DNA of 64,000 bases from positions 372,001 through 436,000 of the forward strand of contig NZ_CP031088.1 in assembly GCF_003339775.1 (NCBI RefSeq). Reading direction: 5' to 3'. The notes beneath the pieces are model-generated. The model was not told where the DNA came from. It saw only the letters and a list, made by a program, of their open reading frames with translations, and searched no databases. A program made the position numbers and the translations under genes. Source of the DNA: Spiroplasma phoeniceum P40 (lineage in GTDB: Bacteria > Bacillota_I > Bacilli_A > Mycoplasmatales > Mycoplasmataceae). Positions 15,241 to 34,904 of the stretch are shown in pieces. Position 1 is the stretch's first letter; every line of letters begins with the position of its first letter.

Positions 15241-15404
15241 TGCATTATTATTCATCAGATAGTACCTTTATTAAAAATGATATTATTAGTTGTTAAAACG
15301 AAAAAATATAATAAATCACAGAAAGGGAATTATAAATATTAACTAATTTTTGGGGAAAATAGGTTAATTTTTAATTTTAAAGGTACTATCTGATGAATAA
15401 TGCA
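15241..15404. repeat. 164-bp element with 27-bp terminal inverted repeats
   Basis: The left arm begins TGCATTATTATTCATCAGAT and runs on to AGTACCTTTA. The right arm, read on the other strand, begins TGCATTATTCATCAGATAGT and runs on to ACCTTTA. They differ only by a three-base ATT insertion in the left arm. The core of about 100 bp is AT-rich and has an AGAAAGGG site but no real ORF. The shape is that of a MITE or of a stem-loop from a phage intergenic region. No flanking direct repeat was seen. Confidence 0.6.
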
Positions 15405-15807
15405 ATCTAAAACTTAATATTTTGATGCATAAAGATGGATAACTCATCTATGGCACGAAGCTTTAAAGAAAGTGTGAAAGCGATTGGATTTACTATTCTA
15501 TTTATTTCTTTAATTCTCGGCAAGATTAATCACTTGCGAAATGTCAGAGCGTGTGTTTTTGCTTGTTTCATAAAAAGAGTGTTGTTAAACCAAAAAACAA
15601 TATCGGAAACTAAAAAAGCAAGAGGGAGGAACTCCAAAAGGTTATTTTCTTTGTATAAAGTTGTATAGGGATGGATGAATCGTAATTAATAACTGGGTAA
15701 ACTGTTTTTTTGTTTATTTCCGTGGGGGGTAAACTCTATCAAAATATCCTATCCGCTCCCGCTCACCCCCGAAGTGAAGCGGGCGGCGAAGTAATTAAAT
15801 AACATTT
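15405..15807. other. gene-free region with GC-rich hairpin
   Basis: About 400 bases have higher GC than the surroundings. A 77-codon open frame at 15435-15668 has no ribosome site, matches nothing I know and uses atypical codons. I do not call it. Near 15755-15784 an imperfect GC-rich hairpin (CCCGCTCAC paired with GTGAAGCGGG around CCCCGAA) stands out in this AT-rich genome. It lies just 3' of the membrane-protein gene on the minus strand and may shape the end of its transcript, although no T run follows. Confidence 0.35.
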
Positions 15808-16976: not shown

Positions 16977-18563
16977 TTATTGTTTTTCACTTTGCAAATA
17001 TTCTTGATCTTTTTCATCAACTTCATTAAAAATATGATAACAATGTTTGTATCAAAATAAATATAAAATAATACCTAAAATGATAGCTGAAATTAAATCA
17101 TTTAACCATAATAATATAAAATAATAAATATTACTTTGGTCTGTGCCATCCGATAATCCATGTGCTAAGAAATATCCACACTTTTTACTTTATTATTATT
17201 TATTGCTCTTGGACCACAATTGTTAATGTCTTTTGTTTTTCCTGCTGATTTAGTTGATGAATATCGGTGAATAGCAGTTTTAATGTTAATGAGTTATCCT
17301 TGTGCTGCTATTTAATTTTTTAGGTGTTTAGTTATTTCAAGGGATGAATAACGCACGAAAAGCAGCATTATGCTCTTCATTTCGTGCTTTTATTGTGTTA
17401 CCAATTTTAATGTTATGTGGAACCACTAATAATTGCTAATCCATATCAACAAGTTTGATACATTCGTAAATATTTTTTTGTTCCATAATTATACCCAATA
17501 ATTTTTTTCATCCATTGTGCAATCCCTAATGCAATTGAAGTAAAAAAAGCAATTCAAGGACTTATTGCACTATTAAATAATTGGAAGTATGCTAAACCAT
17601 ATTGCTGGAGTTGAATAAATTGTCCTGGTAATGATGAAATAATTGTTGATGATAAAATTGAAACTAAAACAGCACCTAAATTATTAATAAAAGATGAAAA
17701 ACCTAATCGAAAAATTTCTTTAATTGTTGTTTTATGTAAATAAAAAAGATCACGCCAATGAAATCGTAAATAAGAATTTTTATTATAATAAATACAAAAT
17801 AATAAAACAATAATAAAAAAAATCAGGAACTAATTGTTCCTAACATTGTACATTCTAACAACATTCGACCATATTTTACAAAAACAATTGAAAATAAGAC
17901 ATTAATCGCAATTGCTACAATTGTAATGTAAATTGCAACATGACTTTTTCCATCTGTTCGTAATAATGTTAGTAATAAATAACTAACAAACATTAAAGTA
18001 CTAGCAAGTAACATTGGAAAAACATAATGCCAAGTTAAATCTTGTACGATTCCTTTTTTACTTAATTGAATTAAAATCATAATATTATCTCATTGTGGAA
18101 AAACTAAACAAAAAACAAAAAAAGCTGCAACAAATGAAAATAAAAAGGTAATTGTCAAAGCATTTCCTGCTAAAGATTGTGTTTGTTGTTTATTACTTTG
18201 CCCAGATTTAATTGCAAATGTAATTGATGTTCCTGTCGCAAATAAAATTGCAAAAGCAAATAATAAGTTATAAATTTGCATTGAAAAATGGGCTGACAAA
18301 TTAACAAAAATTTTTGCTGATTCATATGTTCATAATTTACCATTATTAATTGTAATATGTTCTTTATATCAATCCAAATATGGCTGATGATGAAAAACAT
18401 TTGGTGATACAAATGTTAAAGCAATAAATTTATCGAAGATTGGATATAATGCTGTCATTGCCATCACAAAGACAGTTGGTAAATAAAAAATAAAAATTGT
18501 TTTTCATAAATTGTCATAACGTAACTTAATCTCGTTTTTTGAAAAAACGGTTTTCTTTATTAT
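16977..18563 (-). pseudogene. MATE-family efflux pump with an internal inverted segment
   Basis: The minus strand encodes a MATE (Na+/H+ drug antiporter) protein that aligns with the intact paralogue at 33309-34904. The N-terminal two thirds run from NLWKTIFIFYLPTVFVMAMT to IGYNYGTKKYLRMYQ and WYGLAIIS. The C-terminus is YFLAHGLSDGTDQSNIYYF to YLQSEKQ. The missing middle lies between them on the plus strand at about 17180-17420: LFTLLLFIALGPQLLMSFVF, ADLVDEYRWIAVLM and LFQGMNNARKAALCSSFRAF. Short GTGG/CCAC repeats border the flip. One further shift lies inside the flipped part. The start lacks ATG: AAAGGGGG is followed by ATA ATA. Confidence 0.75.
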
Positions 18564-27617: not shown

Positions 27618-29189
27618 TTAGTTCTCCAATCCTTCTTTTCACATTCCAACTGGTACTGGTTTAATTTGATATTTTCTTAACACAGTAACCGATAAAATAC
27701 TACATATTAACGGCATAATAATTCCTAATAATACTGATAATACTGATAATCATCAAGGTTTTGATAACCCCGAACTAATAAAGACATAAAACATAAAAAC
27801 AATATTAACTGCTAACAACAATGGTGTTAAATACGAAATCGCAAATTTATATGTTTTACCAATTTTAATTAACGAGTGTGCATTATTGTAGACAATCATT
27901 ATTGGTAATTTTTTGTAAATATGAATAAATAAAATAATTTCAACTAAAGCCATCACTAACATATTAACACTACCAGCTAAAGCTTGGAACGAATAAAGTA
28001 ATTGGTTAGTATCTTTAAACATTAAGACTAAACCAATGGCAGCCATTAAAATCATTAATAAAATAATAACTTGTTTTTCCTTTACCTTGTAATTTGAAAA
28101 AATTCCATTTATGACAACTTCAATCATTGCAATAATACTACTTAATCCAGCAAATAATAATGCTGTAAAAAATAAAATGCCTAAAAAGTTTCCAAAACCA
28201 ACAAAGGTTTGTTTATTAATAGCATTAAAAGTTTGTGGAAAAACATTAAAGATAAAACTAGCACCACCATTCTTTGGAAACGCTTCATCAATTGCTTTGG
28301 TATAATCATCAATCGTAATTAATCCAGGATTTTGTTCATGAACTAAAATGCCTGCTGAACCAAAAACCATAATTAATGTTAAAAGTGAAATTGCTAAAAC
28401 ACCAAATGATAAAATATATGCTTTATTTGTATTATCCTGTGTTTTTGGTGCTGCACCAGCAAATAACATCATAAATCCTGAACCAACACAAACCGTAAAC
28501 ACACCTAATCCAAAGGCATCACTTCATACTTGCAAGCTTCCAAAGGAACTTAAGGTTCTTTGCGTTGGCATTAAAACTGTTCCTAGTCCTTCTAATGCTC
28601 CTGGAATTGTTAAAACGTAAATTGCTAAAACTAATAAAATAACAAATAAAACTGGAATAAAAATAACATTTGCTTTTTCAATTCCTTTTGCTCGAAACAT
28701 CACAATTGTCCCAGCAATAATAACAATTACAATAAAGGCTAAGTATGCTAATCATTGAAAATTAGCATTACCGGCTACAGCAATTCCACCAGGATTTAAA
28801 ATATTATTATCAAACCATAATGGTGTATTAATTGACGATGTAAAATTTAATATTAATAAAATTAAAACATAACCAATTAATACGGTATAGTAATTAGCGA
28901 CAATAAACATAAAGGCTGATTTAAATCAACCGATAAACCCACTTGCTTTTGGGTTTTCTTCATCAAAAATATTAATTAACGATTTACGTCGCATATTACC
29001 AATGTTGAATTCTAAAATTAATAACGGAATGCCACAAGTAATAATTGCTAAAATATATAAAACAAAAAATGCTAAACCTCCATTTTGCTTTAATAAAGTG
29101 GGGAACCCCCATACATTACCAAGTCCAATTGCTGCCCCTAATGTGGAAACAATAAAACCAAACTTGCTAACATGCTTCTTCTTTTTCAT
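27618..29189 (-). CDS. sodium-dependent amino-acid transporter (NSS/SLC6 family)
   Basis: A 523-residue protein with about 12 membrane helices. The first helix carries the NSS signature GAAIGLGNVWGFPTLLKQNG, which binds substrate and Na+, followed by GIPLLILEFNIG. Others include GVFTVCVGSGFMMLFAGAAP and LFAGLSSIIAMIEVVINGIF. It should import an amino acid with sodium. The small MetS-like gene directly behind suggests methionine, alanine or a branched-chain substrate. A terminator-like hairpin lies just ahead of its ribosome site. Confidence 0.88.
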
Positions 29190-29507
29190 TTTTTAATTCC
29201 TTTCTTTTAAAAATAAAAAACAATTACTAATAAATTATTAATAATTGTCCTTAACGAATAATATTTCTTTTTATTAATAAAAAAATATCGCTGCATTTTT
29301 TTCTCAAATTTTTCTTATTATCATAATTCTGTCTCTAAAATATTGAATAATAGTTTTAGTTTAGAAAACTAATTCTGAAGCAACTATCACCGTGTTCAGA
29401 AATCATCGTGCACCAAATACTCCTGCAAATACTTGATGCACATTTAAGAAAAATATTGATAGGTGCATGCCTTCCCTGTTTGGTAAAGACACTTCCCATT
29501 GACTATA
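29190..29507 (-). promoter_or_regulatory. leader with terminator hairpin ahead of the NSS transporter
   Basis: About 320 bases lie between the small membrane gene and the transporter start. Close to the transporter, CAATTATTAATAAT pairs with ATTAGTAATTG and is followed by TTTTTTATTTTT, a terminator only about 15 bases before the AAAGGA site, so it acts as an attenuator if real. Just upstream, a 29-codon frame (MQRYFFINKKKYYSLRT) runs into the hairpin and could be a leader peptide. Further up are TTCTGAA...TTCAGAA and GTGCA...TGCAC pairings. No known riboswitch core was recognised. Confidence 0.4.
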
Positions 29508-32067: not shown

Positions 32068-32641
32068 ATGAAAAAATGAAACAAAAAAAGTATCGACAGA
32101 ATCCTAAAATTAAGCGAATGTTTCGAATTAAAGGTGTATATCATAAAAAGTCTAAGTCATTATCAACATAGTCTTTTACTAACTCTTTAACACGTGTAGC
32201 ATCTTCATGGTAATCTAATTGGGTACTAATTGCAATGGTATATGTTTGATCATCATCATTACTAATATCGGTCATATAAATTTCATATTCAGTATAAATT
32301 AATTCATTTTGAATGCGTTTATTTTGAAAGGGATTGGTCATATAATGGACAAAATTTTGTGCTAATTTTGTTGCCTCATATACCATTGGTGAACAAATTG
32401 ATGAAAAAGAACAAGCTTTTTTGAATCATTAGGATTTATTCAAAATGAAATTTTAGTTGGAATGGTACTTGATTTAACAAAATGAAAAAAAGTAAAATTA
32501 AAAGTTGATAAAAATCTTAAATTTCGACGTGTTAATGATAATAAACGATTAAATGATTTTAGTAAAATTCTTGAAAGTGCAATGGGACCAAAAAGTTGAG
32601 ATTATGCATTTTATAAAACTTTATTAAAATGAATTATGTAA
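32068..32641 (+). pseudogene. unknown conserved-looking protein split by an internal inversion
   Basis: The plus strand begins MKKWNKKSIDRILKLSECFE and ends NEILVGMVLDLTKWKKVKLK to FYKTLLKWIM. The middle, about 32138-32385, is coding only on the minus strand: VYEATKLAQNFVHYMTNPFQ to KELVKDYVDNDLDFLWY. Flipping it back gives one frame across both joins (ELKVYEATKLAQ and DNDLDFLWYTIGEQIDEKEQ). The borders carry the near-palindromes GGTGTATAT and ATATACC. A missing T near 32420 is a second lesion. The rebuilt protein would have about 190 residues, with no recognised family. Confidence 0.65.
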
Positions 32642-33308: not shown

Positions 33309-34904
33309 TTATTTTTTTTGTTGATGTTTCACTTTTAAAACTTTTTTAGTTCGTAAATCTTCTTGATATTCATTAAAATATGGATCAGGCTCATCAACTA
33401 ATTTGTTACGATATTTTCTTCAGTAGTAAACTAAAATTGGAATAATAATTGCTGCTGAAATTAAATCATTTAAACCAATAAAGACATAATAGAAAATTGG
33501 ATTTCCAGTTGCTTGACTAACGCCAAAACCAATTCCAATTAATGGTAAAATTACAACAATTGAACGTAAACTACTTGTAAATGTTGCTAAAAAGGAACGA
33601 TTAATTCCTTGGAACAACGTTAAAGCAATATAAGTTAATGAACAAAATGGATAAGTCATAAAGTTTAAAACAATTCATCAACGATATTTCGTTGCATATT
33701 TTTCATGAAAAGCAAATAACATCATCATATCTTTTGCAAAAATAATAAAGACAATTAACATTAAACAAAATCAAATAATAATTAATAAACTAACCCGTTT
33801 TAAAACTTCTCAAATTCGAGCATTCTTTTTTGCCCCATAATTATAAGCAATAATACTACGAGCCCCTTGTGTAACACCAACCCCTGCTGATAATACTAAT
33901 GTCATTCATGGCACAATTGAAGAATAAAGTTCCTGCAAAACAGCAACCCCATTATGATATTCTTGGTTTGGTAACTGAACAACAAGGGATGTTGCAACAT
34001 AAGATGTAACGACTAAAGCAGCATTATTAATAAAATTTGGTAATCCTGCTTTAGTAAAATTAGCAATATTTTTTCCTTCAATTTGGAATAAGTCATTTCA
34101 ATAAAATTTTGAATAACTATTTTTTGTTTTAAAAACAATAATAAATCCTCAAATTACTTGTACTGTTCAAGAAAAAACTGTCCCCAACATTGCTCCTGAC
34201 ATTCCAAGATGACAAACTCTCATAAAGAAAATGGCAGATGCAGCATTAATTAATAATGAACTTAAAATCATAATTATTACTCATTTCATTCGTCCTTCAC
34301 TACGAATTAAGGACATAAAATAATAACTTAAAAACATCATTGGTGCTGCTGCTAACATTGGAAATGAATATTCTCAACATAAACTTTCTGTAATTGGATT
34401 ATAATGTTTTCCCATTTGAGAAGTAATAAATATAGCGTTTCATCCCGGAAATACAATACAAAAAATTGCAAATGCGACGATGATTGAAAAAAGAACTGTT
34501 AATGAAAAACCATTTCCTGCAATTCGACGCATACTTGGAATATCACGTTGCCCATAAGCAATTGAAAAATTCATTGCACAACCCATTCCAATCATAATAC
34601 TAAACGACCATTGTAAGTTATATGTTTGTGAAGCATATTGAGTTGCAACATTAATAAATGACCGCATATCAGCTAAAGGAATTTCTGTAACACTAATATT
34701 TTTTAACCGATTATATGCATCAATATAAAATTGGTCATGAATTAAATCAGGTGCGGCAAATGATAATGCTAAACTTTTATCAACAATATTGTATAACCCT
34801 TGAAAAATCATTAAGAAAACAGTTGGAACACAAAAGTATGCTATTGTTTTTCAAGGTTTTTCAAACCGTAATTTTTTTTCACGACCTGTTAAAACTTCTG
34901 ACAA
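33309..34904 (-). CDS. MATE-family efflux transporter
   Basis: A 531-residue, 12-helix antiporter of the MATE/DinF group, continuous when TGA is Trp. Landmarks are AYFCVPTVFLMIFQGLYNIV, IGMGCAMNFSIAYGQRD, AGVGVTQGARSIIAYNYGAK and TLFQGINRSFLATF. It should export toxic cations in exchange for Na+ or H+. The start is TTG at 34904 with a GGGGGAGGAAA site, as there is no suitably placed ATG. The Lys-rich tail ends KVLKVKHQQKK. It is the intact paralogue of the rearranged gene at 16977-18563. Confidence 0.85.

What the first reader, a model, noticed from the sequence alone, without database searches (positions are those of the whole stretch)
16977..18563. In-place inversion of about 240 bp inside a MATE transporter gene
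The minus strand codes the N- and C-terminal parts of a MATE pump. The missing middle (FIALGPQLLMSFVF, DLVDEYRWIAVLM, LFQGMNNARKAALC) reads only on the plus strand at about 17180-17420. Placed back in order it aligns with the intact MATE paralogue at 33309-34904 (KYRWWIVLNFMTYPF, TLFQGINRSFLATF). GTGG at one border and CCAC at the other suggest a flip between tiny inverted repeats. Such micro-inversions are easily missed because each strand shows a plausible ORF.
Basis: partly seen in the sequence, partly recalled or inferred. Interest (0 to 1): 0.68.

Follow-up and report, generated by a model that had tools for sequence, protein, structure and literature searches.

The report
Flipped DNA piece in dying gene
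In this Spiroplasma a 240-base piece of an already decaying transporter gene has been turned end for end; it is one of at least seven such flips in five related genomes, all of which keep the DNA length exactly and lack the inverted repeats that usually cause DNA to flip, so it is an overlooked kind of mutation and not a genetic switch.

Summary
Window 17181-17420 is inverted inside a MATE-family gene. Seven same-genus genomes carry the segment on the gene's own strand, so the flip is derived here. Turned back in silico, the region aligns colinearly over 1,758 bp.

The proposed cause, a flip between tiny inverted repeats, is not supported. The CCACA/TGTGG pair exists only after the event: TGTGG was duplicated at one end and five bases were lost at the other. 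A reversible switch is unlikely: the gene has other frameshifts and stops, some inside the flipped piece, and no serine or tyrosine recombinase was found in the genome.

The event is not isolated. Screening 0.4-0.8 Mb stretches of five relatives gave seven micro-inversions without long inverted repeats (150-557 bp; another is at window 32135-32381). All seven conserve length exactly, with small end offsets and 0-4 bp microhomology. RecA is broken or undetected in all five genomes; Ku and MutS are undetected.

I favour conservative cut-flip-rejoin, perhaps by a type II topoisomerase. Template switching is the main rival. No read data were available.

The parts
16977..17179 (-). C-terminal part of the MATE pseudogene, outside the inversion
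   Evidence: Colinear with close relatives at 91-96% identity
17181..17420 (+). Inverted segment, about 240 bp (one shared base at each border); codes the missing middle on the plus strand
   Evidence: Opposite strand to its flanks when compared with G002, G004, G005, G007, G008, G009, G010; junction fit
17176..17180 (+). CCACA at the left border: flank copy of the 5 bp that occur twice after the event
   Evidence: Ancestral flank is AAATATCCACATAAC in close relatives
17416..17420 (+). TGTGG at the right border: second copy, standing where relatives have TAATC (GATTA on the minus strand)
   Evidence: Relatives read GGTTGATTACTTTTTACT-like here on the minus strand; this genome lacks GATTA
17311..17332 (+). 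One-base insertion and stop codons inside the inverted segment, so turning it back would not give an open frame
   Evidence: Restored translations break here; alignment with relatives
17421..18563 (-). N-terminal part of the MATE pseudogene, with a frameshift near 17820-17830 and ATA where G005 has its start codon
   Evidence: Pfam MatE
32135..32381 (.). Second micro-inversion of the same kind (about 247 bp), inside a gene whose relatives code an intact 377-aa protein
   Evidence: Opposite strand to its flanks against all ten relatives with matches on both sides; junction fit, length conserved; open 377-aa frames in G002 and G005
27888..28037 (-). Here un-inverted, inside an intact 524-aa transporter-like gene; the same 150 bp are inverted in relative G004

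Best explanation
This is a derived inversion of 240 bp inside a dying MATE transporter gene; it is a mutation and not a switch. Shown here: derived state, gene decay, exact length conservation, no meaningful inverted repeats, and the same signature in six further independent events in related genomes. Inferred: both ends of a small DNA loop were held together, cut with a short stagger, swapped and resealed. The non-matching overhangs left a mismatched patch at each junction, and replication kept one strand, giving 5 bp gained at one end and 5 bp lost at the other. The most plausible agent, weakly supported, is a type II topoisomerase (gyrase or topo IV) exchanging interfaces between two cleavage complexes. 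Confidence by step: derived inversion in a pseudogene 0.95; not a reversible switch 0.9; conservative cut-flip-rejoin 0.55; type II topoisomerase as agent 0.25.
For: Inversion and polarity. Decay of the gene in this genome, and deletions in G004 and G007. Seven independent events (E1-E5, E7, E8), found with a tolerance of up to 80 bp at each border, all have replaced length equal to inserted length exactly. Two independent joinings would not be expected to agree to the base seven times. End offsets are 4-6 bp in E1 and E3, 1-7 in E2, 2-3 in E4, 1-4 in E7 if G002 is derived, and compatible with 0 in E5 and E8. The longest inverted match near the ends averages 5.4 bp against 5.8 bp at random positions. 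No Ku in 14 genomes, no serine or tyrosine recombinase in this genome, recA with three stops in this genome and truncated, stopped or undetected in G002, G005, G004 and G007, no MutS in 14 genomes. Both type IIA topoisomerase A-subunit genes are present. Gyrase interface swapping has been proposed to make micro-deletions or micro-inversions (PMC11164529).
Against: The 2-3 bp offset of E4 does not fit the fixed 4-nt stagger of type II topoisomerases (stagger from general knowledge), so the agent is uncertain. Only seven events were found; the direction of E7 (G002 or G005) and E8 (G000 or G004) was inferred from which copy has the better open frame. Template switching could also give inversions with 0-4 bp microhomology. 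No raw reads were available, so an assembly fault in any single genome cannot be formally excluded, although the events lie in different genomes.
Confidence: 0.6

Rival explanations
1. Replication template switching: the growing strand jumps to the opposite strand, copies the segment backwards and jumps back, using 0-4 bp of microhomology.
For: One to four shared bases at most junctions. The process is well described, including spacer inversions between inverted-repeat arms (PMC8604942). It needs no RecA, Ku or recombinase.
Against: Two independent jumps need not restore the exact length, yet all seven events do. In yeast, spacer inversions were seen only with arms over 9 bp and involved spacers of a few bases, while these have no arms above chance and are 150-557 bp.
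Confidence: 0.3
2. Programmed or phase-variable inversion by a site-specific invertase acting on short inverted repeats.
For: A 5-bp inverted pair flanks the segment in this genome.
Against: The pair is absent in the un-inverted relatives; no serine or tyrosine recombinase family member was found in the genome while the controls ring; the segment carries its own frameshift and stops; none of the seven relatives holding the locus shows the flipped state.
Confidence: 0.03
3. Assembly or sequencing artefact.
For: No reads were available to check; homopolymer frameshifts in the same gene could in part be read errors.
Against: There is no long inverted repeat to mislead an assembler. The junctions show a 5-for-5 base exchange that an assembler would not be expected to make. 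Similar events occur in several separate assemblies.
Confidence: 0.06

Closest known systems
Micro-inversions used as phylogenetic characters in mammals (Chaisson et al. 2006, cited in PMC2483231)
   Same: Short in-place inversions that mark a lineage
   Different: Bacterial, mostly inside protein-coding genes, with base-exact length conservation examined here
Invertons / conservative site-specific inversions in bacteria (PMC5903667, PMC11892184)
   Same: Conservative flip of a short DNA segment
   Different: No inverted repeats above chance, no invertase family found, not reversible in effect
Spacer inversion by template switching between inverted-repeat arms (PMC8604942)
   Same: Reverse-complemented segment in place, length kept
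   Different: No arms; segments are 150-557 bp instead of a few bases
Gyrase-mediated illegitimate recombination / interface swapping (Ikeda and co-workers; PMC11164529)
   Same: Homology-independent, RecA-independent exchange; micro-inversions proposed by the 2024 authors
   Different: Not shown for these events; one of seven offsets does not fit a 4-nt stagger

Membership tests
Inverton (invertase-driven DNA inversion) | Inverted repeats at both ends before the flip | tested here: not met
   Ancestral ends of E1 have a longest match of 4 bp; all seven events 4-7 bp, as random positions
Inverton (invertase-driven DNA inversion) | A site-specific recombinase in the genome | tested here: not met
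   No PF00239 or PF00589 match in this genome; controls positive
Inverton (invertase-driven DNA inversion) | Both orientations in a population | not testable with these tools
   No read data
Micro-inversion (short derived in-place inversion) | Segment inverted in place relative to an ancestral order shared by outgroups | tested here: met
   Seven relatives share the un-inverted order
Template-switch inversion between inverted-repeat arms | Inverted-repeat arms at the ends | tested here: not met
Type II topoisomerase illegitimate recombination | Conservative exchange without homology | tested here: met
   Length conserved in seven of seven, offsets 0-7 bp
Type II topoisomerase illegitimate recombination | 4-nt stagger at the exchange points | tested here: inconclusive
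   Six of seven events are compatible with 0 or 4; E4 gives 2-3
Type II topoisomerase illegitimate recombination | Enzyme dependence | not testable with these tools
   Needs experiment
MATE transporter family | Match to the MatE profile | tested here: met
   PF01554, E 1.1e-8, above cut-off for the 254-aa N-terminal piece

The most novel reading that the evidence does not exclude
Citri-clade spiroplasmas, which lack an intact RecA, Ku and MutS, accumulate 150-600 bp length-conserving inversions made by type II topoisomerase interface swapping, so that gene decay here records an otherwise unseen mutation process.
Probability: 0.2. Interest if true: 0.72.

Novelty: new variant of a known kind. 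Interest (0 to 1): 0.47.

Why it matters
Short inversions inside genes are easily missed by annotation, because each strand shows a plausible frame. That seven of seven repeat-free flips keep the length to the base argues for a cut-and-reseal process in genomes that lack the usual recombination tools. It bears on a puzzle raised for these bacteria (PMC3563533): extensive rearrangement despite a broken recA. It would also give natural data on the proposal that gyrase can make micro-inversions (PMC11164529).

Tried and rejected
1) Named relatives by protein scan of genome contigs: none confirmed, perhaps because of the TGA=Trp code; a DNA pattern then named two relatives. 2) A viral-contig scan found nothing. 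4) Candidates set aside from the repeat-free class: a 165-bp segment with 13-20 bp inverted repeats (window 15247-15412 and G004), hairpin-like pieces under 100 bp, IS elements in opposite orientations. 5) Inverted repeats as the cause: rejected by a random-position control. 6) A fixed 4-nt stagger: not established, E4 does not fit.

Full report
WHAT WAS CHECKED. The window lies at G000:C1:372001-436000 of a 1.9-Mb, four-contig genome.

THE INVERSION. Translation shows the N- and C-terminal MATE parts on the minus strand and the middle on the plus strand. The N-terminal piece matches Pfam MatE. A DNA search of 14 genomes of the genus shows that in G002, G004, G005, G007, G008, G009 and G010 the stretch of about 240 bp matches on the strand opposite to the rest. 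When the piece is turned in silico, the whole region aligns with G002 or G005 in one stretch of 1,758 bp at 91.5%. The gene is an open 537-aa frame in G002 and G005. So the flip arose on the window's lineage.

THE JUNCTIONS. On the gene's strand the ancestral left end reads GTGGTT-GATTA-CTTTTTACTT and the right end AATGTTA-TGTGG-ATATTTC (inferred from the close relatives). The window has GTGGTT-CCACATAACATT at one junction and AAGTAAAAAG-TGTGGATATTTC at the other. Thus TGTGG is present twice and GATTA is gone. Apart from one shared base at each border, the two ends have nothing in common.

A DEAD GENE. Besides the flip, the gene has a frameshift near 17820-17830, an insertion and stops at about 17311-17332 inside the flipped piece, and ATA where G005 has its start codon. 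G004 and G007 have lost other parts by deletions. Turning the piece back would not give a working gene, which argues against a switch.

NOT ALONE. I compared stretches of five genomes (G000 836 kb, G002 800 kb, G004, G005 and G007 400 kb each) for short inverted pieces between colinear flanks. Beside inversions with clear inverted repeats (a repeated 165-bp segment, hairpin-like pieces, IS elements), seven events have none: E1 MATE; E2 window 32135-32381 in a 377-aa gene, derived against ten relatives; E3 a 150-bp flip in G004 in a transporter-like gene that is intact in the window at 27621-29192; E4 172 bp in a photolyase-like gene of G000; E5 557 bp in a plectrovirus-like element of G004; E7 about 240 bp in a small secreted-protein-like gene, in G002 or G005; E8 about 230 bp in a P-loop phage gene, most likely in G004. 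Gene names for E2-E5, E7 and E8 are my reading of the translations, not profile matches. E1-E4, E7 and E8 break a frame that is open in a relative; E5 swaps the ends of two phage frames.

THE COMMON SIGNATURE. A junction fit gives replaced length equal to inserted length, to the base, in all seven. The one deviation, E1 against G007, is two bases and coincides with a two-base insertion in G007 near the junction. End offsets lie between 0 and 7 bp and microhomology between 0 and 4 bp. Longest inverted matches near the ends are not above those at random positions (mean 5.4 against 5.8).

MACHINERY. In this genome the recA match has three stop codons inside; G002 has only its first part, G005 one stop, and none was detected in G004 or G007. 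A broken recA in S. citri and S. melliferum is known (PMC3563533). Ku and MutS were not detected in 14 genomes. No serine or tyrosine recombinase family match was found in G000, with positive controls. Two type IIA topoisomerase A-subunit genes are present. A causal link between RecA loss and these flips is not shown: recA-intact relatives were not screened.

MECHANISM. Equal gain and loss at the two ends is what a staggered cut at both ends, a flip and resealing would leave after replication of one strand; without MutS the mismatched patch would not be corrected by that route (inference). Type II topoisomerases cut with a 4-nt stagger (general knowledge), and gyrase interface swapping was proposed to allow micro-inversions (PMC11164529). 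Six of seven offsets allow 0 or 4; E4 (2-3) does not. Template switching remains the main rival.

LITERATURE. Searches of the held library for bacterial micro-inversions found no description of this class; the library is incomplete, so this is weak evidence of novelty.

VERDICT. The recurrent, repeat-free, length-conserving pattern is the interesting part.

Noticed in passing
window 32135-32381: A second repeat-free micro-inversion of about 247 bp, only in this genome, in a gene that is an intact 377-aa frame in G002 and G005.
   Followed up: yes
window 15247-15412: A 166-bp segment inverted relative to many copies of a repeated element, with 13-20 bp inverted repeats at its ends. The same segment is inverted in a G004 copy, so this one looks repeat-driven and recurrent.
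   Followed up: partly
window 27888-28037: Un-inverted here in an intact transporter-like gene, but inverted in relative G004.
   Followed up: yes
G000:C1:105304-106089 (L040, 5304-6089; outside the window): recA homologue with three in-frame stops; a photolyase-like gene at G000:C1:114919-115090 nearby is broken by a micro-inversion.
   Followed up: partly
G004:C1:532108-532664 (L085): One plectrovirus-like copy has a 557-bp internal inversion relative to the copies compared in the stretches of G000, G002, G005 and G007.
   Followed up: partly
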